From an uncultured beta proteobacterium (GTDB lineage Bacteria > Pseudomonadota > Gammaproteobacteria > Burkholderiales > Rhodocyclaceae): DNA of 10,424 bases. Where the stretch lies: contig CAIYYE010000347.1 in NCBI GenBank assembly GCA_903930395.1, forward strand, positions 1 through 10,424, read 5' to 3'. Positions 1 to 10,424 of the stretch are shown piece by piece. Positions within the stretch are counted from its first letter, which is position 1. Each line of letters opens with the position of its first letter. Position numbers and translations under genes: made by a program. The notes below the pieces were generated by a model. That model was not told the origin of the DNA and did not search any database. It saw only the letters and a program-made list of their open reading frames with translations.

Positions 1-1803
1 GGCCGAGTTCGTATGCCGAGTGGAATAGACAAGGTGGCCGGTCAGCGCAGCGTGGAAGGCCACTTCGGCCGTGTCGAACTCGCGGATTTCGCCGAGCAGG
101 ATGACATCCGGGTCCTGACGCAGCAGGGCGCGCAGGACGGCCGGAAAGGTCAGCCCGATTTTTTCGCGGATGAGTACCTGGCCGGCCATGTCGAGGTAGT
201 ACTCGACCGGATCTTCGATGGTGACGTAGTTCTTGTCGGGAGTGGCGTCGTGCTGGAGGAGTGAGTAGAGGGTCGTCGTCTTGCCGCTGCCGGTCGGGCC
301 GGTGGCGAGGATGATGCCTTGCGGCTTGGCCACCATGTCGGTGACGCGGAGCAGGTCGTTGCTCGAGAAGCCGAGTTTTTCGATGGTGTGCACCGTCGAA
401 TTGCGGTCGAGGATGCGCATCACGACTTTTTCGCCATTGATCGTCGGCAGCGTGGAAATGCGCAGATCGACCATGCGCATTGGCGTCTTGACCGTAATGC
501 GGCCATCCTGCGGGCGACGGCGCTCGGAGATGTCGAGCTCCGACATGATTTTCAGGCGCGACACCAGCGATTGGTGCAGATGATGCGGGATATGAATCTT
601 GTCGGCGAGGACGCCGTCGATCCGGTAGCGCACGATGACACTCTTGGTGCGCGGCTGGATATGGATGTCGGAGGCGCCCAGGCGTATCGCTTCGAGAATG
701 ATCGCATTGGCCAGGCGGATGGCCGGGGGAGTCTCGGTGTCGCGCAGCAGGTCTTCGAGCTTGGCGGCATCTTCCTCCTCGATGACGATCTCGATGCCTT
801 CGTAGGGGTCAGGCGAGCTGACCAGGGTTTCCAGCTCCTTGAAATCGACCTCGCCGCCGCCGTAGATTTCATCGACTTTCTTGCGGATCGCGGCGATGTC
901 GGCGGTCACTGCATTGATATCAAGGCCGGCCGTAAAGCGGACTTCGTCGATCAGACCTTCATCAAGCGGGTCGGCCATGGCCAGCAGCAGGCGGCGACCT
1001 TCAAGCTTGAGCGGGACGACGGCCTGGCGCATGCAGAAACTGCGCGGGATCAGATCGGTCAGCGCGGAATCGACGCTGAATTCCGAGAGCTGGACTTCCT
1101 CGATCATCATGTCGATCTTGAGCAGCTCGCGGATGCGGCGCTCCGGCACCCAGTCCTTTTCGAGCAGCAGCGTGATGAGCGGCTCCTTGCGCCGCTCCTG
1201 GAGCATGGTCAGCTCCTGCAACTGGGCATCATTGAGCAGCTTCTTCTTGTGCAGCATGATGCCGAGCCGGCTGTGGTGGGTCGCCGCGAGCCGTGAGAGG
1301 GCCGAGATTTCCTTCGACTTGAGGTCGTTTTCGGCCTTCAGGCTGCGATTGCGCGTGATCAGGTCGAACTGTTCGAGGGCGAGGGCGACGGTGACGCGCA
1401 GGTCATCGTCGTTCCATGGCTTGAGGATGAATTTGTAGACGGCACCCTCGTTGATGGCGCCCATGACGGCATCGGTATTGGCATGGCCGGTCAGCATGAT
1501 GCGGATGGTGTCCGGTGACTGCTTTTTGACTTCCTGCAGGAACTGCGCGCCGTTCATGCCGGGCATCATGAAGTCGCTGATGACCAGATGGATGGGCCCA
1601 GTGGCGAATTTTTCCAGCCCTTCCTTGGCACTCCAGGCGGTCAGAATCTCGTAGTTTTCCTGATGGAAGACACGGCTCAGCGCCTTGACGATGCTCGGTT
1701 CGTCATCGACAAAGAGCAGGCGGTAGCGCGGCGGCGTGAGATGGGTGGCCGGTGCCTGCGGGGCAGCGGTCTTGCCGGTGAAGAGCTTGGAGTAATCGGT
1801 CAT
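1..1803 (-). CDS. REC-MshEN-GspE/PilB-type assembly ATPase (3' end outside window)
   Basis: This is a hexameric-type secretion or type IV pilus assembly ATPase fused to a response-regulator receiver. My translation from the ATG at 1803 is open for 601 codons to the window edge. Residues about 27-145 form a receiver: acidic pair D33/D34, phospho-acceptor D77, T105 and K128 in KPW. After a helical linker, residues about 179-315 form an MshEN/T2SSE N-terminal domain with a well-kept first 24-residue c-di-GMP motif starting RLG at 179. The ATPase core follows: ASDIH at 377-381, Walker A GPTGSGKT 502-509, Asp box TIEDPVEY 528-535, Walker B with GEIRE 571-575, and His box TGHLVYSTRHTN 588-599. The C-terminal end, including any zinc-binding cysteine motif, is not visible. 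The start overlaps the preceding kinase stop (ATGA) and has no good Shine-Dalgarno, so it probably depends on coupling. It is likely the effector of the operon: an ATPase that takes both phosphorylation and c-di-GMP inputs. Whether it drives pili, type II secretion or something else cannot be decided here. Confidence 0.93.
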   Translation of the reverse strand, partial: MTDYSKLFTGKTAAPQAPATHLTPPRYRLLFVDDEPSIVKALSRVFHQENYEILTAWSAKEGLEKFATGPIHLVISDFMMPGMNGAQFLQEVKKQSPDTIRIMLTGHANTDAVMGAINEGAVYKFILKPWNDDDLRVTVALALEQFDLITRNRSLKAENDLKSKEISALSRLAATHHSRLGIMLHKKKLLNDAQLQELTMLQERRKEPLITLLLEKDWVPERRIRELLKIDMMIEEVQLSEFSVDSALTDLIPRSFCMRQAVVPLKLEGRRLLLAMADPLDEGLIDEVRFTAGLDINAVTADIAAIRKKVDEIYGGGEVDFKELETLVSSPDPYEGIEIVIEEEDAAKLEDLLRDTETPPAIRLANAIILEAIRLGASDIHIQPRTKSVIVRYRIDGVLADKIHIPHHLHQSLVSRLKIMSELDISERRRPQDGRITVKTPMRMVDLRISTLPTINGEKVVMRILDRNSTVHTIEKLGFSSNDLLRVTDMVAKPQGIILATGPTGSGKTTTLYSLLQHDATPDKNYVTIEDPVEYYLDMAGQVLIREKIGLTFPAVLRALLRQDPDVILLGEIREFDTAEVAFHAALTGHLVYSTRHTNSA

Positions 1804-3002
1804 GGCGGGGTCGGGAAAAACAGCGTTACCGTGGTGCCGACGTCCGGCTGGCTGTCGAGGCTGATGCGTCCGCTATGGGCCTGAACGACGTTGCGCGCCG
1901 TGGCCAGCCCGAGTCCGACACCCGCACCGACCGGGCGTGTCGTATAGAAGGGCTCGAAGGCATGTTCGATCTGCTCCTGGCTCATGCCGACGCCGGTGTC
2001 GTGGATGCGGATGTGGATGCCTTCATCGTCGGCTTCCGAGGAAATCCTGACTTCTCCCGGTCGCCCGGCATCCTTGATGGCCAATACGGCGTTGCGGAGA
2101 ATATTGAAAAACAGCTGGTTGATATGCCCCGGCAGGCAGACGATGGCGGGCAGGGGCAGCAGGTCGAAATGGAAGCCGATGCCGGCAGGCGTCTGCGTCT
2201 CAAGCATGCGGACAGCTTCGTGCAGGCAATTGTTGAGGTCGGCGTATTCTTCGCTGGCCCGGTCGACGTTCGAAAATGCCTTCAGGTCGGCGACGATGCG
2301 GGCAATGCGCTCCATCCCCTTGGCGCTGTCATGGAGCAGGTCAATGCTGTCTTCGAGAATGAAATCGAGATCGAGCACCCGCCAGCTTTCGGCCGCAGGG
2401 CCGCTTGCTGTTTTCATCTCGGCAAACTTGCCGACGTATTTTTCAAAAGTGCTCAGGTTGCTGCGCACGAAGCCAAGCGGGTTGTTGATTTCATGCGCCA
2501 TGCCGGCAGCGAGCTGGCCGACGGAGGCGAGTTTTTCAGCCTCGTAGAGCATCTGCTGACGTTCTTCCAGTTGGTCGACCTGTTTCTTGACGCGGCTTTC
2601 CAGTTCGGCCGAGAGCGTCTTGTAGCGGGCTTCCGATTCGCTGAGGCGGGCATGTTCGCGCTTGAGCGATTCGAAATCCTCGGCCACGGCCTCGAGGTGG
2701 AGGGTCGAAGCCATCTTGAAACGAATCTGGGCGCGCAGCAGGGTCAGCAGCAAATCCCGCGCGGCGCTCAGTGCGGCCGCTGGGGCTGTGCTGCTGAGCA
2801 GGTAGCCGACGGCTTCAAGCTCGAGGATCAGCGGTTCGCGGCGGGCATCGGCGGAGGGCTGTCCCCATAATGCCTGGCCGGCACCATCCGTCAGGGCGAA
2901 ATCGCCCCTGAGCAACTCGCGAAGCGCCGGGCCGATTTTTTCCCGGCTGGCCTCGTCGAGCAGTTCGTCGAGTTGCCACTCGCGATCGAAGCCGAGGCTC
3001 AT
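1800..3002 (-). CDS. Cytosolic histidine kinase with uncharacterised N-terminal domain
   Basis: This is a 400-residue soluble sensor histidine kinase. Residues 1-95 form a small domain I do not recognise, with a run resembling an LxLExVGYL strand near 59-69. A coiled coil follows at about 103-158. The dimerisation/phospho-acceptor region has AHEINNPLGF with H170. The ATPase domain has an N box (N300, N304), G1 DTGVG at 335-339, an F box around FEPFYTT at 349-355, and G2 GAGVGLGLA at 359-367. No membrane segment is seen, so the signal must be cytosolic or come from a protein partner. The start has GGGGA seven bases upstream and overlaps the GTPase stop by four bases (ATGA); the stop overlaps the ATPase start the same way. 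The most likely phospho-targets are the receiver on the ATPase next door or the stand-alone receiver two genes upstream; this is inferred from position. Confidence 0.93.
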   Translation of the reverse strand: MSLGFDREWQLDELLDEASREKIGPALRELLRGDFALTDGAGQALWGQPSADARREPLILELEAVGYLLSSTAPAAALSAARDLLLTLLRAQIRFKMASTLHLEAVAEDFESLKREHARLSESEARYKTLSAELESRVKKQVDQLEERQQMLYEAEKLASVGQLAAGMAHEINNPLGFVRSNLSTFEKYVGKFAEMKTASGPAAESWRVLDLDFILEDSIDLLHDSAKGMERIARIVADLKAFSNVDRASEEYADLNNCLHEAVRMLETQTPAGIGFHFDLLPLPAIVCLPGHINQLFFNILRNAVLAIKDAGRPGEVRISSEADDEGIHIRIHDTGVGMSQEQIEHAFEPFYTTRPVGAGVGLGLATARNVVQAHSGRISLDSQPDVGTTVTLFFPTPP

Positions 3003-3646
3003 GCCGCTTTCCCCAGGGCGCCGGCGACAAAGGCATTTTCATCGAGGCCGTGTTGCGCCAGTAGCTCGAGTTTTTCGCCGAAATTCCGGTAGACCGCGCG
3101 GAGCAGGAGTTCAAAGGTCGATTCGATGCCCTGGCCGTTTAAGGCCACGGCAAAGACCAGCGGCCACGGGGCGGCCGACCAGCGCTCGCGAATTTCGGCC
3201 TCGGGCACGGCATTGGGCAGGTCGCACTTGTTGAACTGGACAACCATGGGCAAGTGTTCGAAATCGAGACCGACGCGAGCGCAATTGGCGGCCAGGCTCT
3301 GGAAGGACTCGCCGTTGTTGGTTTCCTGGGCGCGGTCGGCATCGGCCACGAATACGACGCCATCGGCGCGCGAGAGAACGGCCTTGCGCGTCCCGTCGTG
3401 CGCCACCTGGCCCGGCACGGTGAACAGCCGGAACTTGATGAGCAGTCCGGATGGTGCACGAAAACCCAGGGGCAGGAGATCGAAGAAAAGCGTGCGGTCG
3501 TCCTTGGTCTCCATGGTCATCAGCTCGCCCTTCAACTCCGGGGCAAGCTGGTCGTGCAGGCGGAACAGGTTGGTCGTCTTGCCGCTCTGCGCCGGGCCGT
3601 AATAGACCAGTTTGAAGCTCAGGTGCCGGGCATCGCTTTCGGGCAT
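2999..3646 (-). CDS. MglA-like small Ras-type GTPase
   Basis: This is a 215-residue small GTPase that closely follows the bacterial MglA pattern. Motifs: G1 GPAQSGKTTNL from 17; a G2/switch I stretch DDRTLFFDLLPL from 49, very like MglA; G3 TVPGQ at 76-80, the MglA form in place of Ras DTAGQ; G4 NKCDLPNA from 139; a G5-like turn near 167-171. R51 and Q80 align with the Arg and Gln that MglA uses for GTP hydrolysis, so it is probably active. Residues past about 185 form an extra C-terminal helix. MglA proteins set cell polarity and control type IV pili or gliding in Myxococcus; a role here in steering the downstream ATPase is inference. The ATG at 3646 is chosen because all G-domain homology follows it and AAGGA lies 11 bases upstream; in-frame ATGs further upstream would only overlap the receiver gene. 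No MglB/roadblock gene is visible. Confidence 0.92.
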   Translation of the reverse strand: MPESDARHLSFKLVYYGPAQSGKTTNLFRLHDQLAPELKGELMTMETKDDRTLFFDLLPLGFRAPSGLLIKFRLFTVPGQVAHDGTRKAVLSRADGVVFVADADRAQETNNGESFQSLAANCARVGLDFEHLPMVVQFNKCDLPNAVPEAEIRERWSAAPWPLVFAVALNGQGIESTFELLLRAVYRNFGEKLELLAQHGLDENAFVAGALGKAA

Positions 3647-3653
3647 GGCGACT

Positions 3654-4220
3654 TCAGTCCTTGTGTTGAAACTCGGGGTCGAGGATGACCGAGCCGTCCG
3701 GTCCCCAATTGACATCGGTGATCCCCGGTTCGATGTGCTCGAGGCGTTCGGCTTCCAGTTGTTCGGGTGTGATGTCGCCCATTTCAAGGCGAACCAGGTT
3801 GGCAAGCTGACGGTTTTCCAGCATCAGGTCGCGATGCGCCAGGGCCTGCCCGATGGCCGACATGAGGTCATAGTCGTTCCACGGCTTGCCGATGAAACGG
3901 TCGATACCGACTTCGTTGACGGCGCGGACCAGGGCATTGAGATCGGCGTAGCCGGAGAGGATCAGGCGCGCAGCATCGGGCTGGACTTCCTTGGCTGCCT
4001 TGAGGAACTCGATGCCATCCATGCCGGGCATCCGGTAGTCGCTCATGAACAGGTCGAACTCGTCGTTGCGTGCCGCCTCCAGGGCGGCCTGCGGCGAATT
4101 GAAGTCGAATATTTCCAGGGTGTAGCTCTTGTTGCCATAGGTGCACGGGGCCAGGCGCAGGACGCGCTTGAGCGCCTTGAGGATGGAGTCCTCGTCGTCA
4201 ACGATCAGGATGCGGCTCAT
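3654..4220 (-). CDS. Stand-alone receiver-domain response regulator
   Basis: This is a 188-residue protein made almost entirely of one receiver domain. Visible residues are acidic D8/D9, phospho-acceptor D61 in SDYRMPGMDG, S89 at the Thr/Ser switch position and K112 in GKPW. The first helix-strand connection (about residues 24-36) is longer than usual and includes APCTYGNKSY. No DNA-binding, enzyme or other output domain follows. Instead there is a helix (about 120-150) and a 40-residue tail rich in acidic residues, with the run EPGITDVNWGPDGSVILD from 164. Such proteins usually act by protein-protein contact or as phosphate relays. The gene starts with an excellent ribosome-binding site (AGGAGG, four bases from ATG), overlaps the HD-GYP stop by four bases, and ends seven bases before the GTPase. 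A link to the GTPase, as RomR has with MglA, is a reasonable guess, but this protein is not evidently a RomR. Confidence 0.92.
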   Translation of the reverse strand: MSRILIVDDEDSILKALKRVLRLAPCTYGNKSYTLEIFDFNSPQAALEAARNDEFDLFMSDYRMPGMDGIEFLKAAKEVQPDAARLILSGYADLNALVRAVNEVGIDRFIGKPWNDYDLMSAIGQALAHRDLMLENRQLANLVRLEMGDITPEQLEAERLEHIEPGITDVNWGPDGSVILDPEFQHKD

Positions 4221-5533
4221 TTTTCCTCCTGGCGAACATGGAGCATCAGTTTAATCTGCTCCGCATCTTCCATCCTGACCAGTTGCCCGATGATTTCGGC
4301 GGTCAGCACGGCGCCCTTGGCGAGCAGCAGGTAGCCGTCGCGGTGCAGGAAGTCACGACTGAGCACCATGCCGGGCTTGAGCAGCAGGGGCCTGAAGGGG
4401 ACTTCGATGATGCTCGGTTTGCTGTTTTCGGTGAGCAAGGCGATGAAGGCGTCAACCACCGACGGGTCATAGCGCTTGCCGCGATTCTCGATGAGGAATT
4501 TCTGGGCTTCAGCCGGCTTGAGCGGGCGCTGGACAAGGGTGCCGATGAGCAGCGAGTCATAGTCGTTGACCACCTGCAGGATGCGGCTGCCCTGTGGAAT
4601 GGCGTGGCCAGCGAGGTGGTCGGGGTAGCCGTTGCCGTCGAATGATTCGTGATGATGGCGGACGAAGAGGGCAGAATCCTTGAACTTGTCGATGCCCATG
4701 AGCACGTTTTGCCCGATCACCGGGTGCTTGACGACGAGGGCACGCTGCTCCGGGGTCAGGGTATTGAAGGGCTTGGTCAGCAGGTCGTCGGGCAGGCCGA
4801 GTTTGCCGATGTCGTGCAGGAGGCCGGCCAGCATGATGTTCTGGACCTCGGTGTCGGGCAGGCCGAGACGCTTGGCCACACTGCGCGCATGCTCGGCGAC
4901 GCGCCGGCCGTGGCCGGAAATCTGGCTGCCGACCGTGCCGCTACGCAGTTCGATGAGGCCGGCAAAGACCTGGACGCTGGTCAGGAAGGACTTTTTCAGT
5001 TCGCTGTGCGACTGCTCGACGAAAGCCAGGGCCTGGCGAACCTCGGCCGTACGTTCGGCAACTTTTTGCTCGAGGCCGGCGTTGAGTTCCTTCAGTTGCT
5101 CGTTCTGCTCCTGGGCCAGCCGCGTCAGTCGCAGGTTTTCGTGCTTCAGGCGCTGGTGTTCGAGGGCTTCGCTGACGATGGTGACGATTTCGCTGTCGTC
5201 CCACGGTTTCGAGATGTAGCGATAGATTTCGCCCTGGTTGATGGCGGCGACCGTCGAGGTGATGTCGGCATAACCGGTGAGCAGGATGCGCGTTACAGCC
5301 GGCCAGCGGGAGCGAACCTCCTTGAGGAAGGTCGCACCATCCATTTCCGGCATGCGCATGTCGGAAATGACGAGGTCGATGTGCTCCTTCTCGAGGATTT
5401 CCAGTCCGGCGGCGCCGCCCTCGGCAATGAATATCTGATAGCCATGCGGCCGGAACAGGCGGCGCAGTGCCGACAGGATGCCCGGCTCGTCATCGACAAA
5501 GAGTAGCGTGGGAGCGGCCACGGTCTCGCTCAT
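4217..5533 (-). CDS. RpfG-like REC-HD-GYP protein, probable c-di-GMP phosphodiesterase
   Basis: This 438-residue response regulator has an HD-GYP output, the family that hydrolyses c-di-GMP to pGpG or GMP. The receiver is at about 8-125: D14/D15, phospho-acceptor D58, T86 and K109 in SKPW. A long coiled coil spans about 125-182. The HD-GYP domain is at about 185-370: LLHDIGKLGLPD with H240, D241 and K244; H270 in KHP; then HHESFDGNGYP with H294, H295, E296 and GYP at 302-304. One metal-ligand position differs from the usual VADxFDAL: the sequence is VVNDYDSL, with N323 where Asp is normal. K339 may be the conserved lysine after it. A further small C-terminal domain, about 378-435, begins near LLLKPGMVL. 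The start has GGAG eight bases upstream and overlaps the preceding stop (ATGA). Phosphorylation by the adjacent PAS kinase is likely from gene order. The class is firm; actual activity is less certain because of N323. Confidence 0.93.
   Translation of the reverse strand: MSETVAAPTLLFVDDEPGILSALRRLFRPHGYQIFIAEGGAAGLEILEKEHIDLVISDMRMPEMDGATFLKEVRSRWPAVTRILLTGYADITSTVAAINQGEIYRYISKPWDDSEIVTIVSEALEHQRLKHENLRLTRLAQEQNEQLKELNAGLEQKVAERTAEVRQALAFVEQSHSELKKSFLTSVQVFAGLIELRSGTVGSQISGHGRRVAEHARSVAKRLGLPDTEVQNIMLAGLLHDIGKLGLPDDLLTKPFNTLTPEQRALVVKHPVIGQNVLMGIDKFKDSALFVRHHHESFDGNGYPDHLAGHAIPQGSRILQVVNDYDSLLIGTLVQRPLKPAEAQKFLIENRGKRYDPSVVDAFIALLTENSKPSIIEVPFRPLLLKPGMVLSRDFLHRDGYLLLAKGAVLTAEIIGQLVRMEDAEQIKLMLHVRQEEK
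4225..4230 (-). promoter_or_regulatory. Consensus Shine-Dalgarno for the stand-alone receiver
   Basis: On the minus strand this reads AGGAGG, four bases before the ATG at 4220 and within the last codons of the HD-GYP gene. It is the best-matching ribosome site inside the operon body, suggesting that the small receiver is made in higher amount than its neighbours. Confidence 0.6.
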
Positions 5534-6864
5534 GATGAAGTCTCCGAATCTTGGGTTTCAGTAGGCGGTGTTGGGTTGATCGGCAGTACCACGCGGAAAG
5601 TGGTCCCCTGGCCGACGACGCTTTCAACCTCGAGGCGGCCCTTGTGCCGGCGCACGATGCCATAGGATAGCGACAGCCCGAGGCCGGTCCCCTTGCCGAC
5701 CGGTTTGGTTGTGAAGAAGGGCTCGAAAATCCGGTTCATATGCTCGGGCGCAATACCCTGTCCGGTGTCGCTGACTTCGATGCAGACCTTGTCGTCGTCC
5801 TGGCGAAAGCTGCGGATGGTGATTGTGCCCTGGGTTTCGATGGCGTGCCCGGCATTGACCAGCAGGTTCATGAAGACCTGGTTGAGTTGCGAAATCAGGC
5901 AGTGGATCTTGGGGATATCGCCGTACTCCTTGATCACCTTGGCCTTGTACTTGAGTTCGTTCCAGACGATGTTGAGGGTCGAGTCGAGGCCTTCATGGAG
6001 GTCGGCTTCCTGCCATTCCTGTTCGCCGACGCGCGAGAAGTTCTTGAGGTCGAGGACGATCTTGCGCACGCGGCCAAGACCATCCCTGGATTCATTGAGA
6101 AGGTTGTAGATATCGTCCTTGAGAAAGGCAAAATCGTGCAACTCCTTCAGTTGCCTGATTTCATCTTCATGGGGACTGCATTCGCCAGGTTTGACGAGTA
6201 TCTGCTCGTAACCGTCAATGATCGCCAGCAGGTCACGGATGTAGCCATCCAGGGTGCCCAGGTTGGAGTGCACAAAGCCGATCGGGTTGTTCAGTTCGTG
6301 GGCGACGCCGGCCGCCAGTTGGCCGATCGAGGCCATTTTTTCCGATTGCATCAACTGGTTGTTGGCTTCTTCGAGGCGCTTGTTGAGTTGTTTTTGTTGA
6401 TTGAGCGCATCACTCAATACTTGCTGTTGCTGTTTGCGTTCGCTGATGTCGGTCAGGACGCCATCGAAAGCGATGGGCCGACCTTCGCTGTCGCGCACGA
6501 CACGGGTCCGGTCAACCACCCAGATTACCTGGCCTTGCGCCGTCAGCAGGCGGTATTCGAGGTTATAGCTCGTGGCTCCGGAGCTTTCGTGGCTGGCTAT
6601 TTCTGACGCTACACGTGCTCGGTCATCGGGGTGCAGCAATTCGCCAAATGGCGGGTTGCCGGTAACCAGGTTGCTGGCCCGATAGCCCCACTGTGCTACG
6701 TTGTCTGAAACAAAAATGACTGGTCTGCCATCACCCGCCGCCCAGCGAAAGCAAACAACCGGGCTGGCATTGACGACCTGCATGAGGAGGTCGAATGCAT
6801 CGGGCGTGCGTTGCCGGCCTTCCTGTTCGCGCTGACTGGTATGCCGCATTTCATCGGATTTCAT
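5530..6864 (-). CDS. Cytosolic PAS-domain histidine kinase
   Basis: This is a 444-residue soluble sensor kinase. Residues about 25-142 form a PAS domain of the PAS_3 kind with its PAC end (HPDDR at 78-82; GVLTDISERK ends at 144). A Gln-rich coiled coil follows at 145-178. The phospho-acceptor is H189 in AHELNNPIGF. The ATPase domain shows N boxes (N333, N337), DTGQG 366-370, FEPFFTTKPVG and GKGTGLGL at 390-397. No membrane segment is visible, so the PAS domain reads a cytosolic cue such as redox state or a small ligand; no heme or flavin site can be named. The start at 6864 overlaps the upstream stop by 14 bases and has AGGGGG six bases before it. An alternative ATG at 6849 sits one base past that stop but has a poorer ribosome site. 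It lies directly before, and overlaps by four bases, the HD-GYP gene, its probable partner. Its kinase core is similar in style to that of the kinase at 1800-3002. Confidence 0.94.
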   Translation of the reverse strand: MKSDEMRHTSQREQEGRQRTPDAFDLLMQVVNASPVVCFRWAAGDGRPVIFVSDNVAQWGYRASNLVTGNPPFGELLHPDDRARVASEIASHESSGATSYNLEYRLLTAQGQVIWVVDRTRVVRDSEGRPIAFDGVLTDISERKQQQQVLSDALNQQKQLNKRLEEANNQLMQSEKMASIGQLAAGVAHELNNPIGFVHSNLGTLDGYIRDLLAIIDGYEQILVKPGECSPHEDEIRQLKELHDFAFLKDDIYNLLNESRDGLGRVRKIVLDLKNFSRVGEQEWQEADLHEGLDSTLNIVWNELKYKAKVIKEYGDIPKIHCLISQLNQVFMNLLVNAGHAIETQGTITIRSFRQDDDKVCIEVSDTGQGIAPEHMNRIFEPFFTTKPVGKGTGLGLSLSYGIVRRHKGRLEVESVVGQGTTFRVVLPINPTPPTETQDSETSS

Positions 6865-9778
6865 GGTCAGCCCCCTGAGCCTTGCGGAAGGCTTCGCGTA
6901 TCTGTTCGCGCAGGATATCGCCGTCCCAGGGCTTGGTCAGGAACTTGTAGATGGCGCCACGATTGATAGCGTCGGTGACGGAGTCGAGATCGGTGTAGCC
7001 GGTCAGAACGATGCGGATGGTGTCTGGGTAAAGCTGGCGCACCCGGGCAAAGAATTCAGTGCCAGACATTTCCGGCATGCGCTGGTCGGAGAGAATGACC
7101 TGCACCGACTGTTTGGCCAGATGTTCGAAAGCTTCCGTTGGCGACTGGGCGGTCAGGATGTTGAATTCTTCGCGGCGGAACAGGCGGGTCAGGGCGGCCA
7201 GGATATTCGGTTCGTCGTCGACGATGAGCAGTGTCTGGCGGCTTTGCTCCGCTTTGTCCGAAAGCGTCATGCGCTTCCGGCTGGCCAGCAATTGCTCGAA
7301 TTCGGCGGCCGGTACGGGGCGACTGAACAGATAGCCCTGCATCGCATCGCAGCGTCGGCTGCGCAGGAAACTGGCCTGCGCTTCGGTTTCAACGCCTTCG
7401 GCGAGGACCGACAGGTTCAGGCTGCGGGCAAGAACGATGGCGGCGTTGGCGATGGCGGCGTTGACCGGGTTCTCGGTAATGTCGCGGATGAAGCTCTGGT
7501 CGATCTTGATCTTGTCGAAGGGAAAGCGCGAGATATAGGCCAGTGACGAATAGCCGGTGCCAAAGTCGTCGAGTGATATCTTGACGCCGAGCTTCTTCAG
7601 CATCCGGCACTGGGCGATTGCTTCGTCAACCTCTTCGATCAGAGAGCTTTCGGTAATTTCCAGTTCAAGGGCGGTGGCGGGCAGCCCGGTTTCGGCCAGG
7701 CACTGGCTCACCAGGCCGGTCAGGTTGCTCTGGCGGAACTGGCGTGGCGAGAGATTGACCGCTATGCGCAGGTTGGCGAGGCCGAGGTCCAGCCATTGCC
7801 GGGTCTGCCGGCAGGCGGTGCGCAAGACCCACTCGCCAATCGGCAGGATCAGACCGGTGTCTTCGGCGATCGGGATGAACTCGGCCGGGGAAACCGGGCC
7901 GAATTCCCGGGTATTCCAGCGCAGCAGGGCTTCCATGCCGATCATGTTGCCGCTGTCGAGGCTGATCTGCGGCTGGTAGTGGACAGTCAGTTCGTTGTTC
8001 TGAAGCGCCTGGCGCAGGGCCGCTTCGAGCCCGAGCCGGCGGCTGGCATCGGCATCCATTTCCGGAGAATAGAAGCGGAAGGTGTTTTGTCCGTTGGCCT
8101 TCGCCCGCAGCAGGGCGGCATCCGCACACTTCATAAGCGTGTCGGTGTCGTTGCCGTCGCGTGGGGCGACGGCAACGCCGATACAGGCGGTGAGGGAGAT
8201 CGAGTGACCCTCCACGTCGAAAGGCACGGCAACGGCATCGAGCATGCGCTGGGCCAGGGAAATGGCATCGCGCTCCTGACCCAGGCTGGCCATGACGAAA
8301 CCGAATTCGTTGCTGGATCGTCGGCCGACGGTATCGCCCTCGCGTACCTGGAGATTGAGCCGGCGGGCCACTTCGGCCAATATGCCGTCACCAATCGGCG
8401 GACCCAGGGTGTCGTTGATGAGGCGGAAGCGGTCGAGGTCGAGCAGGATGACGGCAGTCTCGCGGCCGAAGCGGTGGGCGCTGATCAGCGATTGCCAGAG
8501 GCGGTCGGCAAACAGGCTGCGGTTGGGCAGCTTGGTCAGCGGATCGAAGCTCGAGAGGTACTGGATGCGCTCGGCAGCGGCGTTACGTTCCGAAAGATCG
8601 CTGAAGATGCCGACATAATTGGTCAGACGACCGCTGGCGTCGTGCACGGCCGAAATGCTCAGCCATTCCGAAATGAGTTCGCCATCCTTGCGCCGGTTGG
8701 TGATTTCCCCCTGCCATTTTCCCTGACGGTTGATGCTGTCCCACATGTCGCGATAAAACTCGGCCCCATGTACGCCGGACTGGAGCAGTTTCGGGGTGTT
8801 GCCAGCCGTTTCACTGCTGTTGTAACCGCTGACCTTGGCAAAGGCCTGGTTGGTCAGCAAAATCCGGCGATTGGCATCAGTGATACAGATACCATCATTG
8901 ATTCCCGTGAAAACGACCGATGACAACCGTTGCTCGGCTTCGGTAAGCTTGCGCCGGGAGATGTCGGCCATTGTTCCCAGGCTCAGGGTCGGCTTGCCCT
9001 GGGCATCACGCGCCAGTATCCGGCCGCGCACTTCCATCCATACCCAGTGACCTTCGGCATGGCGCATGCGGGCTTCTTCGACATGAATTTCGTCACCCGA
9101 TCCGGCCGAGCCGTCGAGGGCCTTGAGCATGGTGTCGCGGTCTTCCGGGTGGATCAGATCGAGGCTGGCGGCGATGCTCGGGGGTCCTTCGGACAAGCCG
9201 AGAATCTGTGCCAGGCTGGGACTCCAGTGGTTGCTGCCGGCGGCGTGATCGAATTCCCAGATTCCGAAGCCTGAGGTGGCCAGGGCAACCTGCAGGCGGG
9301 CTTCAAGGGCGATGTTTTCGGCGGTGCGCCGGGCCACTTCCTGTTCGAGCCAGGCCTTTTGCCCGGCCACGGTATCGCGGGCCCGCTTCAGCTCAAGCTG
9401 GGCCTTGACGCGAATGCCGAGGACGGCCGGGTTGATCGGTTTGCTGATGTAGTCGACGGCGCCTTCCTGAATGCCCTGTTCCTCACTTTCCGGATTGTCC
9501 AGGGCGGTCACGAAGATGACCGGGATGTCGGCCGTTTGCGGATCGGCACGGAGGGCGCGGAGTACGGCGTAGCCATCCATGCCGGGCATCATGACATCAA
9601 GCAGGATGAGCTCGGGCTGAGGGTCGAGGCGGGCGTAGCGAAGGGCCACCTGGCCGCTGTTGGCGACCCGGACGTCGACGCCGAGCTGGCCGATCATTTC
9701 GGAAATGGTGCAGAGGTTGTCAGGCACATCATCGACAATCAAGACGATGGGTTTGCCCGGTCCCTGAGTCGTGCTCAT
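6851..9778 (-). CDS. REC-PAS-PAS-GGDEF(degenerate)-EAL-REC protein, predicted c-di-GMP phosphodiesterase
   Basis: This 975-residue protein has receivers at both ends. REC1 at about 10-130 has D16/D17, acceptor D61, T91, K113. PAS1 is about 163-276 and PAS2 about 285-398. GGDEF, about 402-572, is degenerate: the signature reads SSNEF (488-492) and the usual TLGH is TLGP. The inhibitory-site RxxD (R479, D482) is kept at the canonical five-residue spacing. EAL, about 583-830, looks complete: EALLRW from 616, NLSPRQF, E707 in ELEITE, DDFGTGYSSL from 737, AEGVET, QGYLFSRP. REC2 at about 848-970 has acceptor D898, T926 and K949 in TKPW. Expected activity is c-di-GMP to pGpG, with GGDEF acting as a regulatory or binding module. 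The start at 9778 is chosen because GGAGAG lies eight bases upstream and REC1 begins soon after; in-frame ATGs at 9796 and 9847 add only non-conserved residues and lack good ribosome sites. No membrane segment is seen. Confidence 0.94.
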   Translation of the reverse strand: MSTTQGPGKPIVLIVDDVPDNLCTISEMIGQLGVDVRVANSGQVALRYARLDPQPELILLDVMMPGMDGYAVLRALRADPQTADIPVIFVTALDNPESEEQGIQEGAVDYISKPINPAVLGIRVKAQLELKRARDTVAGQKAWLEQEVARRTAENIALEARLQVALATSGFGIWEFDHAAGSNHWSPSLAQILGLSEGPPSIAASLDLIHPEDRDTMLKALDGSAGSGDEIHVEEARMRHAEGHWVWMEVRGRILARDAQGKPTLSLGTMADISRRKLTEAEQRLSSVVFTGINDGICITDANRRILLTNQAFAKVSGYNSSETAGNTPKLLQSGVHGAEFYRDMWDSINRQGKWQGEITNRRKDGELISEWLSISAVHDASGRLTNYVGIFSDLSERNAAAERIQYLSSFDPLTKLPNRSLFADRLWQSLISAHRFGRETAVILLDLDRFRLINDTLGPPIGDGILAEVARRLNLQVREGDTVGRRSSNEFGFVMASLGQERDAISLAQRMLDAVAVPFDVEGHSISLTACIGVAVAPRDGNDTDTLMKCADAALLRAKANGQNTFRFYSPEMDADASRRLGLEAALRQALQNNELTVHYQPQISLDSGNMIGMEALLRWNTREFGPVSPAEFIPIAEDTGLILPIGEWVLRTACRQTRQWLDLGLANLRIAVNLSPRQFRQSNLTGLVSQCLAETGLPATALELEITESSLIEEVDEAIAQCRMLKKLGVKISLDDFGTGYSSLAYISRFPFDKIKIDQSFIRDITENPVNAAIANAAIVLARSLNLSVLAEGVETEAQASFLRSRRCDAMQGYLFSRPVPAAEFEQLLASRKRMTLSDKAEQSRQTLLIVDDEPNILAALTRLFRREEFNILTAQSPTEAFEHLAKQSVQVILSDQRMPEMSGTEFFARVRQLYPDTIRIVLTGYTDLDSVTDAINRGAIYKFLTKPWDGDILREQIREAFRKAQGADHEIR
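6871..6876 (-). promoter_or_regulatory. Ribosome-binding site for the PAS kinase
   Basis: On the minus strand this reads AGGGGG, six bases before the ATG at 6864 and inside the 3' end of the preceding gene. It favours the 14-base overlapping start over the ATG at 6849. Confidence 0.5.
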
Positions 9779-9807
9779 TCCGCCTGCTCTCCACATACTT
9801 CGTTCAT
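9775..9807 (-). CDS. Possible 10-residue leader peptide ORF coupled to the downstream gene
   Basis: A short frame starts at the ATG at 9807 and reads MNEVCGEQAE, then TGA. Its stop overlaps the ATG of the large signalling gene at 9778 as ATGA, the same junction type used four times later in the operon. It has the stronger ribosome-binding site of the two starts: GAGGAGGGAG (9817-9826), ending nine bases before its ATG. It could raise translation of the downstream gene by coupling. It may equally be chance, since a frame this short carries little statistical weight; the peptide has no recognisable function. Confidence 0.3.
   Translation of the reverse strand: MNEVCGEQAE
9787..9792 (-). promoter_or_regulatory. 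Ribosome-binding site deciding the start at 9778
   Basis: On the minus strand this reads GGAGAG, eight bases before the ATG at 9778. It supports the 975-residue form of the REC-PAS-PAS-GGDEF-EAL-REC protein over the longer form starting at 9847. Confidence 0.6.
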
Positions 9808-9816
9808 GGCCGTAGT

Positions 9817-9826
9817 CTCCCTCCTC
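9817..9826 (-). promoter_or_regulatory. Strong Shine-Dalgarno run upstream of the leader ORF
   Basis: On the minus strand this reads GAGGAGGGAG, nine bases before the ATG at 9807. It is too far (38 bases) from the ATG at 9778 to serve that start directly. In the frame of the large protein it lies 20 bases before the weak in-frame ATG at 9796, also too far. Confidence 0.45.
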
Positions 9827-9872
9827 AAACGCGCTGACACAAGGCATTCCGTGCGCCGCAGCCGAGAAAAAT

Positions 9873-10424
9873 TCAGCTTAGCAGCTTTTTTATTTTTTCA
9901 ATGAGTGGCGGTGTTGCATCAAAGTTGAACAGGGCGATCTTCTGGCGCAGTTGTTCGCACTCGTCCGGGCAAAAACTGTTCAATTCGGCTTCCAGGCTGT
10001 TGAATTGGCGGGTTGCTTCAATGTCGCCACTGGCCAGCAGTTCAGCCAGCGTATCGAGTCTGGGCAGCAGGTCGGGCGCTGCGGACCCTGCTGCCGGCGC
10101 CTCAGCCTGGTGGGGGGCGGTGGCGAACGGGTCCTCGTGCCGCCTCGGCAAATATCTGGCGAGCAATTGATAGAGGTCGTCGGGTTGGGTCGGCTTGCCG
10201 ATAAAGTCGGTCATTCCGGCTTCGATGCAATGCTTTCTGTCCTCATCGAAGGCGTTTGCCGTGAGCGCCACGATAGGGATGGCATCACCCCCGGCGAGGG
10301 CGCGAATTTGCCGGGCGGCCTCGAGTCCGTTGAGTTCCGGCATCTGGATATCCATGAGGATCAGATCAAAGCCCGACTGTTTGTACTGCTCGACCGCCCG
10401 CAAGCCGTTTTCGGCGGTGACCAC
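9873..10424 (-). CDS. C-terminal part of a hybrid sensor kinase or multi-domain response regulator (5' end outside window)
   Basis: The frame is open to the window edge, so this is the last 184 codons (with stop) of a longer gene; the GTG at the edge is simply an internal valine codon. The visible part starts inside a receiver domain: LMDIQMPELNG with acceptor D25 (numbered from the edge), T55 in VALTAN and K77 in FIGKP. This DIQMPELNG/TANAF style is typical of receivers at the end of hybrid histidine kinases of the BarA/ArcB type. A Pro/Ala-rich linker at about 98-117 leads to an alpha-helical end domain, about 118-183. That domain resembles helical tails seen after such receivers but shows no histidine that would make it an Hpt domain. 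It ends 94 bases before the REC-PAS-PAS-GGDEF-EAL-REC start. It may belong to the same transcription unit; the kinase core itself is not visible. Confidence 0.88.
   Translation of the reverse strand: MVTAENGLRAVEQYKQSGFDLILMDIQMPELNGLEAARQIRALAGGDAIPIVALTANAFDEDRKHCIEAGMTDFIGKPTQPDDLYQLLARYLPRRHEDPFATAPHQAEAPAAGSAAPDLLPRLDTLAELLASGDIEATRQFNSLEAELNSFCPDECEQLRQKIALFNFDATPPLIEKIKKLLS

What the first reader, a model, noticed from the sequence alone, without database searches (positions are those of the whole stretch)
1..9778. Candidate signal-to-motor operon: kinases, four RpfG-type receivers, two c-di-GMP hydrolases, an MglA-like GTPase and a c-di-GMP-binding assembly ATPase
Seven genes follow one another with almost no gaps. 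They combine three control systems that usually sit apart: two-component phosphorelay, c-di-GMP turnover and an MglA-type polarity GTPase. The last gene is an assembly ATPase with its own receiver and MshEN domain, the natural point where these inputs converge. MglA control of pili is known in Myxococcus and c-di-GMP control of MshE-type ATPases in Vibrio. I do not recall a described operon that joins them with a receiver fused to the ATPase. The proposed wiring is inference.
Basis: partly seen in the sequence, partly recalled or inferred. Interest (0 to 1): 0.75.

Follow-up and report, generated by a model that had tools for sequence, protein, structure and literature searches.

The report
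MglA-linked, receiver-fused pilus-type motor module
Three neighbouring genes (a Ras-like molecular switch, a sensor kinase and a pilus-type motor with a built-in phosphorylation switch) are kept together in many water and soil bacteria and look like a compact way to switch and place a motor, although the motor probably does not sense cyclic-di-GMP as first proposed.

Summary
The operon is real: eight minus-strand genes nearly without gaps on one contig of an Azonexaceae-type genome. Its core is a triad: an orphan Group 1 MglA GTPase, a histidine kinase (HK1) and a REC-MshEN-T2SSE ATPase. All three occur, in this order, in 78 of 80 named loci (the other two contigs end first) and in 24 of 24 fetched loci of a second sample (six overlap the first). 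In 60 related genomes GTPase and ATPase are both present (14) or both undetected (46). Four genomes without the triad keep the rest of the operon, with HK3 right after REC. The c-di-GMP genes are thus separable.

The 'c-di-GMP-binding ATPase' is contradicted: 0 of 73 orthologues carry even one copy of the published MshEN motif; another ATPase of this genome has both. Receiver and Walker residues tested are intact in 73 of 73. PilM is in 49 of 50 module genomes (class sample 136 of 184), GspL in 20 of 50; MglB was not found in 15 of 19.

Best reading: an auxiliary type IVa-pilus-type motor, switched by phosphorylation and positioned by MglA. Linkage is shown, mechanism inferred. Nine paper searches found no description.

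The parts
1..1803 (-). REC-MshEN-T2SSE assembly ATPase (first 601 of about 746 aa; rest beyond the contig end, probably on contig C645)
   Evidence: Pfam; orthologues of about 743-747 aa; C645 holds the last 94 aa followed by HK3
1387..1716 (-). receiver domain of the ATPase, acceptor Asp intact
   Evidence: Pfam; one Asp of the acidic pair, Asp77, Thr105, Lys128 each in 73 of 73
1111..1269 (-). position of the two 24-residue MshEN half-sites, degenerate (R38 to P, G40 to I, Q61 to D)
   Evidence: against the motif of PMC5013675
1..735 (-). T2SSE ATPase domain with Walker A and Walker B region
1800..3002 (-). HK1, histidine kinase with a conserved N-terminal domain of no known family; between GTPase and ATPase in 78 of 78 loci holding all three
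2999..3646 (-). orphan Group 1 MglA GTPase (P-loop, intrinsic Arg in DRTLFFD, TVPGQ)
3654..4220 (-). stand-alone RpfG/NosR-type receiver with a tail of about 60 aa
4217..5533 (-). REC-HD-GYP c-di-GMP phosphodiesterase, HDIGK and HHExxDGxGYP present
   Evidence: NF053512 558.7 bits over cut-off 400
5530..6864 (-). HK2, PAS-HisKA-HATPase kinase (closest NCBIfam model T2SS_HK, 374 bits, below its cut-off of 450)
6851..9847 (-). REC-PAS-PAS-GGDEF(SSNEF)-EAL-REC, predicted c-di-GMP hydrolase
9873..10424 (-). C-terminal receiver and tail of a hybrid histidine kinase (847 aa in G035)

Best explanation
The heart of the window is a three-gene module: an orphan Group 1 MglA GTPase, a histidine kinase (HK1) and a receiver-fused PilB/GspE-type ATPase. 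It works as an auxiliary motor of the cell's type IVa pilus machine, whose use is set by phosphorylation and by the GTPase. Shown by sequence: the three genes are kept together and are present or absent together; the receiver and ATPase residues tested are intact; no platform gene lies near; the MshEN c-di-GMP motif is lost. Inferred: the operon's kinases (HK1, HK2, HK3) phosphorylate the four related receivers in parallel. Phosphorylation would thus activate the EAL and HD-GYP hydrolases (lower c-di-GMP) and at the same time license the motor. GTP-bound MglA recruits or engages the motor at pilus bases, as MglA/SgmX recruits PilB in Myxococcus. HK1, or another partner, replaces the missing MglB in controlling the GTPase.
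For: Triad: 78 of 80 named loci hold GTPase, HK1 and ATPase, in that order on one strand, 74 of them tightly spaced; in the other two the contig ends inside HK1 (L125) or 161 bases after it (L081). Second sample: 24 of 24 fetched (6 of the 24 contigs match the first sample by length). Relatives: 14 of 60 genomes have the GTPase orthologue and the same 14 have the REC-MshEN orthologue. Empty site: in G030, G032, G010 and G006 the REC gene is followed by HK3 within about 2 to 55 bases, with the rest of the operon kept. Residues: receiver and Walker positions tested 73 of 73; GTPase Arg motif 77 of 80, TVPGQ 79 of 80. Machine: PilM 49 of 50 module genomes against 136 of 184 in the class; GspL 20 of 50. 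No own platform: in G035 five of the seven assembly-type ATPases listed sit beside a T2SSF gene; this one is about 41 kb from the nearest. A second extension motor is known: TfpB (PMC8213720, passages read). MglA/SgmX recruitment of PilB is known in Myxococcus (PMC11580455, abstract and outline read).
Against: No experiment or expression data. Adjacency does not prove physical interaction. T4aP is common in the class (74%), platform genes are also present in the five genus genomes without the module that I searched, and many module genomes are close relatives, so the PilM figure is not independent evidence per genome. Likewise 13 of the 14 co-occurring genomes are of one genus. GspL is a weakly conserved family and may be missed. 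The ATPase scores almost equally against PilB (548 bits) and GspE (542 bits) models, so sequence does not settle the machine. Pilins and secretins were not searched for near the operon. One divergent MglA-like ORF (G142, L154) has no triad beside it. The HK phospho-acceptor motif was found in 69 of 80 picked HK1 frames and the full HD-GYP motif in 32 of 62 picked frames, so the c-di-GMP arm is less constrained than the triad.
Confidence: 0.5

Rival explanations
1. One reading: the ATPase is a c-di-GMP-gated motor in which c-di-GMP, phosphorylation and MglA converge on one protein.
For: Two c-di-GMP hydrolases are in the operon and the ATPase has a Pfam MshEN domain.
Against: Half-site II lacks Arg38, Gly40 and Gln61 in 73 of 73 sequences, and half-site I has Arg9 in only 35 of 73; the relaxed published motif occurs in 0 of 73, while the genome's own C524 ATPase (L012) has both copies. 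XpsE, with a partly similar set of losses, does not bind (PMC5013675, passages read).
Confidence: 0.08
2. The ATPase is no longer a motor for any filament but a signalling output: a receiver-controlled ATPase that reports to another pathway (for example exopolysaccharide), with MglA as co-regulator.
For: No platform gene nearby in G035; PilB itself is reported as a signalling protein for exopolysaccharide in Myxococcus (PMC5544727, seen only as a search listing with the start of its abstract).
Against: Walker A Lys and Walker B Glu are kept in 73 of 73 and the four C-terminal Cys in 12 of 12: full motor anatomy.
Confidence: 0.15
3. The module serves a type II secretion or MSHA-like machine rather than type IVa pili.
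For: Near-equal PilB and GspE model scores; the neighbouring kinases' closest NCBIfam model is named T2SS_HK.
Against: GspL was found in only 20 of 50 module genomes, PilM in 49 of 50; the T2SS_HK matches are below that family's cut-off. MSHA-type parts were not surveyed.
Confidence: 0.12
4. The triad is conserved only because it is a regulatory operon by descent; the GTPase acts on cell polarity in general, not on this ATPase.
For: In Myxococcus MglA-GTP stimulates two different motility machineries (PMC9481161, start of abstract in a listing).
Against: GTPase and ATPase present together in 14 and both undetected in 46 of 60 relatives; the triad persists without the HD-GYP/REC block in Zoogloea loci; order is kept from Beta- and Gammaproteobacteria to a Desulfobia MAG (L135).
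Confidence: 0.15

Closest known systems
Myxococcus xanthus MglA/SgmX (and SofG) control of PilB
   Same: Group 1 MglA with intrinsic Arg and TVPGQ; a pilus extension-type ATPase as the likely end point; SofG is, like this GTPase, an orphan without an identified cognate GAP (PMC4316618 passages).
   Different: In Myxococcus mglA is not near the genes of its response-regulator partners (PMC4316618 section 18) and PilB has no receiver (recalled); here the GTPase is linked to one kinase and a receiver-fused ATPase, and MglB was not found in 15 of 19 genomes tested.
TfpB, second type IV pilus extension motor of Acinetobacter
   Same: An extra extension-type ATPase in genomes that also have PilB (PMC8213720 passages).
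   Different: The G035 orthologue of the window's ATPase is below the TfpB cut-off (449 of 850 bits) and about 745 aa against 584 model positions; the genus has its own TfpB as well (L150).
Vibrio cholerae MshE (MshEN domain)
   Same: MshEN-fold N-terminus on an assembly ATPase.
   Different: c-di-GMP-binding motif lost in all 73 sequences examined; receiver added.
Actinobacterial conservons (CvnA-D) and Group 3 MglA operons
   Same: Small operon pairing an MglA-type GTPase with a histidine kinase or receiver-like protein (PMC4316618 section 18).
   Different: Conservons have a roadblock protein, Group 2 MglA and no response regulator; no receiver-fused motor is described for either in that section.
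PdeK-PdeR/FimX/PilZ-PilB of Xanthomonas
   Same: Two-component signal to a phosphodiesterase that governs pilus motor placement (PMC11656802 passages).
   Different: That circuit reaches PilB through FimX and PilZ, and the review's text does not contain the word MglA; here receiver and motor are one protein.

Membership tests
MglA Group 1 small GTPase | sequence relation to solved MglA proteins | tested here: met
   phmmer E 3e-43, 181 residues aligned
MglA Group 1 small GTPase | intrinsic Arg next to the G2 Thr and TVPGQ in G3 | tested here: met
   invariant in 14 of 14; DRTLFFD 77 of 80, TVPGQ 79 of 80; definition from PMC4316618
MglA Group 1 small GTPase | coupled MglB roadblock GAP (usual, not universal) | tested here: not met
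   PF03259 found in 4 of 19 module genomes, not in the window's own
PilB (TIGR02538) | equivalog score | tested here: not met
   548.5 bits against cut-off 675.65 for the full G035 orthologue
GspE (TIGR02533) | equivalog score | tested here: not met
   541.6 against 630.25
TfpB (NF053534) | equivalog score | tested here: not met
   449.1 against 850
type II/IV secretion assembly ATPase (T2SSE) | Pfam cut-off, Walker A, Walker B, four Cys | tested here: met
c-di-GMP-binding MshEN | two 24-residue motifs | tested here: not met
   0 of 73 with even one relaxed motif
response regulator receiver | acidic pair, acceptor Asp, Thr, Lys | tested here: met
   one residue of the acidic pair, the acceptor Asp, the Thr and the Lys, each 73 of 73; both acidic residues 12 of 12
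RpfG/NosR-type HD-GYP phosphodiesterase | NF053512 cut-off, HD and GYP motifs | tested here: met
   558.7 bits against 400, motifs read; phosphodiesterase activity not testable
type IVa pilus motor | binds and drives the PilC/PilM machine | not testable with these tools
   only genome co-occurrence: PilM 49 of 50

The most novel reading that the evidence does not exclude
The triad is a self-contained molecular switch in which a Ras-like GTPase acts directly on a motor ATPase: phosphorylation of the fused receiver decides whether the motor can be engaged, MglA-GTP decides where, and the uncharacterised N-terminal domain of HK1 is the GTPase's regulator in place of MglB, so that sensing kinase, G protein and motor form one complex. 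As far as my searches show, this would be the first directly kinase- and G-protein-gated pilus-class motor.
Probability: 0.22. Interest if true: 0.82.

Novelty: new variant of a known kind. Interest (0 to 1): 0.6.

Why it matters
How MglA-type GTPases act on pilus motors is known mainly from Myxococcus (my own knowledge), where several partners act together. A compact module of GTPase, kinase and receiver-fused motor, present or absent as a unit and found in named isolates of Dechloromonas, Azonexus, Zoogloea, Aromatoleum and Methylomonas, would make the question testable with three purified proteins and three gene deletions. It would also show that an MshEN-fold domain can be kept under selection after losing its c-di-GMP motif.

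Tried and rejected
c-di-GMP binding by the ATPase: tested by motif, rejected. HK1 N-terminal domain as a hidden roadblock (MglB-like) domain: no Pfam match for the window's member and only stray weak matches among the 72 members, nothing below E 0.28 in the PDB sequences, and profile comparison with four roadblock proteins gave probability 0.15% (only four rows), so not supported by sequence; the structural test could not be run. Platform gene near the operon: the nearest T2SSF in G035 is about 41 kb away; pilins and secretins were not searched for specifically, and none showed among the recurring neighbours that I scanned. Plasmid carriage: only a Deinococcus MglA at 42% in the plasmid collection. 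Class-wide search: 1 of 183 other genomes with a GTPase match at 1e-30 (G142) and none with a REC-MshEN match at 1e-70. The first look scores only part of the candidates (at most 11 a genome, 34), so misses are possible. First ATPase tree was badly trimmed and is superseded; its deep branching is unresolved (long branches) and only the module clade (98/99, nine module rows) is used. The L149 ATPase was translated from an internal start (431 aa), so its N-terminus was not tested for the motif. The last Fisher test used 47 where the correct number of genomes with neither gene is 46; it is not used, and a note with the same slip is superseded.

Literature: nine answered searches, of the held open-licence full texts only, gave no description of an MglA-kinase-receiver/ATPase operon. 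Most subscription papers are not in that library.

Full report
What the window is. The window is the whole of contig C347 of a 2.86 Mb genome in 645 contigs, 88% complete, apparently a MAG; its nearest named relatives by GTPase are Azonexaceae/Dechloromonas-type bacteria. All its main genes lie on the minus strand and touch or overlap. In order of transcription they are: the tail of a hybrid kinase; REC-PAS-PAS-GGDEF-EAL-REC; kinase HK2; REC-HD-GYP; a lone REC; an MglA GTPase; kinase HK1; and a REC-MshEN-T2SSE ATPase cut by the contig end. A 3.75 kb contig of the same genome, C645, holds at one end the last 94 residues of such an ATPase followed by a further kinase, HK3. In the complete genome G035 the same genes run on without a break, ending ATPase (about 746 aa) then HK3, which has an N-terminal hemerythrin domain.

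Conservation. With 14 GTPase orthologues as a profile, a scan of one genome for each of 84,980 species gave 445 relatives, of which the best 80 were returned; the other 365 were not seen. In 78 of the 80 loci all three genes GTPase, HK1 and ATPase are present, in that order on one strand; 74 have tight spacing. Of the other four, L128 has 228 bases before the ATPase, L114 has HK1 split in two frames (241 bases by this measure), L098 has an extra receiver gene between HK1 and ATPase, and L099 has a split HK1. L064 is counted although its GTPase is split in two frames. In the remaining two the contig ends inside HK1 (L125) or 161 bases after it (L081). A lone REC directly precedes the GTPase in 57 of 80 and HD-GYP-REC in 52 of 80. 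A draw of 399 genomes of the order gave 27 with the GTPase (own genome included), all at E 7.6e-95 or better, and none between there and the limit of 1e-20. Named taxa reach from Dechloromonas, Azonexus, Zoogloea, Aromatoleum, Sulfuricella, Rubrivivax and Ideonella to Methylomonas, Methylomicrobium and a Desulfobia MAG. Four distant ATPases checked with Pfam (L101, L113, L130, L135) all have receiver, MshEN and T2SSE domains.

Co-occurrence and the empty site. Among 60 genomes (the window's own, 35 more of its genus, 24 of its order), 14 have the GTPase orthologue and the same 14 have the REC-MshEN orthologue at E below 1e-120; the next best match is 7e-46, a receiver of another protein. Thirteen of the 14 are of one genus. 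Four of the 23 genus genomes without the triad were looked at (G030, G032, G010, G006): all four keep RPGER-HK2-HDGYP-REC followed by HK3 within about 2 to 55 bases, and HK3 starts ATGGA(T/C)GC in these four as in L062, which has the triad. The triad is thus present or absent as a unit inside an otherwise conserved operon; whether by gain or loss was not tested. Conversely, five Zoogloea loci (L074, L076, L077, L080, L082) hold the triad without HD-GYP or lone REC genes in the DNA seen; weak matches (41-52 bits) to the EAL-protein profile lie on the other strand in three of them (L076, L077, L080) and upstream in L074. In a class-wide draw only one of 183 other genomes (G142) had a GTPase match at 1e-30, a divergent ORF without a triad; this is a counter-example at the edge of the family.

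The GTPase. It aligns over 181 residues with solved MglA structures (E 3e-43). It has the Arg beside the G2 threonine and the TVPGQ motif that define Group 1 in Wuichet and Sogaard-Andersen 2014 (PMC4316618; section 18 and passages read). DRTLFFD is found in 77 of 80 loci and TVPGQ in 79 of 80. No roadblock protein (PF03259) was found in 15 of 19 module genomes, the window's own among them, so the usual GAP is mostly missing. That survey reports widely varying neighbourhoods for Group 1 genes; the passages that I read do not mention this one, and its supplementary table was not seen.

The ATPase. The full G035 orthologue scores 548.5 bits against PilB (cut-off 675.65), 541.6 against GspE (630.25) and 449.1 against TfpB (850); in the same genome one other ATPase passes the PilB cut-off and another the TfpB cut-off. 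Module ATPases form their own clade (98/99), whose deeper place is unresolved. The receiver positions tested (one Asp of the acidic pair, the acceptor Asp, Thr and Lys) and the Walker A Lys and Walker B Glu are each present in 73 of 73 sequences (72 of 80 loci with nearly full length, plus the window). By contrast the MshEN half-sites defined by Wang et al. 2016 (PMC5013675; abstract, outline and 12 passages read) are lost: Arg38 in 0 of 73, Gly40 in 0 of 73, Gln61 in 0 of 73, Arg9 in 35 of 73. Their relaxed motif is found in 0 of 73, but twice in tandem in the genome's own C524 ATPase and in the MshE-like ATPase of G035. So c-di-GMP probably does not bind here. The paper notes that imperfect motifs can still bind, so this is a prediction.

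Which machine. In the complete genome G035 there are five T2SSF platform genes and, among the PF00437 matches listed, seven assembly-type ATPases. Five of them are paired with a platform gene; the TfpB and this one are not (the list was cut, so one further match of the 11 counted for G035 is not shown). PilM, a type IVa pilus part, is strongly present (E 2.5e-78 or better) in 49 of 50 module genomes (50 of the 80 loci, chosen by hand to fit the limit). GspL of type II secretion is present in 20 of 50, 18 over the cut-off. The class base rate of PilM at 1e-50 is 136 of 184; Fisher p 5e-5, not corrected for relatedness. The single PilM miss is L062's genome, a 2.5 Mb assembly; G003, whose contig has the same length, is 76% complete. 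Against this, five genus genomes without the module also have platform genes, so the pilus machine does not need the module. The figures favour type IVa pili as the partner but do not prove it.

Signal flow. The receivers of the EAL protein, the HD-GYP protein, the lone REC and the ATPase are 35-45% identical, against 21-31% with the other two receivers. In the window's genome the only matches found to the ATPase N-terminal profile at 1e-40 or better lie in this window (34 of 72 candidates scored). Related receivers beside three kinases suggest, but do not show, shared phosphorylation: one signal would lower c-di-GMP and act on the motor together. Motif conservation in the c-di-GMP arm is looser (HHExx[DN]GxGYP in 32 and HDxGK in 49 of 62 picked frames, a GGDEF-type site in 9 of 37; the EAL site in 37 of 37 frames that were chosen for having it).

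Verdict. One of its claims, the c-di-GMP-binding ATPase, is contradicted. I rate it a new variant of a known kind: an orphan MglA with a receiver-fused pilus-class motor. MshEN domains associated with REC domains were already noted by Wang et al. 2016, so that pairing alone is not new. I found no description of the module in the searches listed under Tried and rejected.

Noticed in passing
L012 (G000 contig C524), ATPase of 575 aa: This ATPase of the same genome carries a tandem MshEN c-di-GMP motif (RLGDLLIEQG... and KLGRVFVECG...), so it is the likely c-di-GMP-gated motor of the cell.
   Followed up: partly
L046:13447-14883 and L048:4350-6389: HK3 downstream of the ATPase has an N-terminal hemerythrin domain in G035 and G002, hinting at oxygen or nitric oxide as an input.
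   Followed up: no
window 2673-3002: The first 110 residues of HK1 form a conserved domain (72 members, FDRE...ELL, Glu63, Arg94, His102) with no convincing Pfam or PDB relative.
   Followed up: partly
L098:5708-6550, L109:3315-4247 and others: A protein family whose two scanned members are HDOD-domain proteins recurs on the triad's strand, mostly upstream, in 17 of 57 diverse loci, with REC or REC-PAS proteins of about 280 aa nearby in several.
   Followed up: no
window 16-18 and 79-81: The window's ATPase departs from residues invariant in the 12 orthologues at two places close to the contig end (Arg for Leu, Glu for Asp); contig-end error or real, cannot be told.
   Followed up: no
L150 (G035) and L011 (G000 contig C613): A second platform-less ATPase, passing the TfpB cut-off in G035 with a near-identical copy in the window's genome; the second extension motor known from Acinetobacter thus has a relative in this genus.
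   Followed up: partly
L154 (G142): A divergent MglA-like ORF at 10363-11142 lies opposite an HD-GYP-kinase cluster but without HK1 or the ATPase.
   Followed up: no
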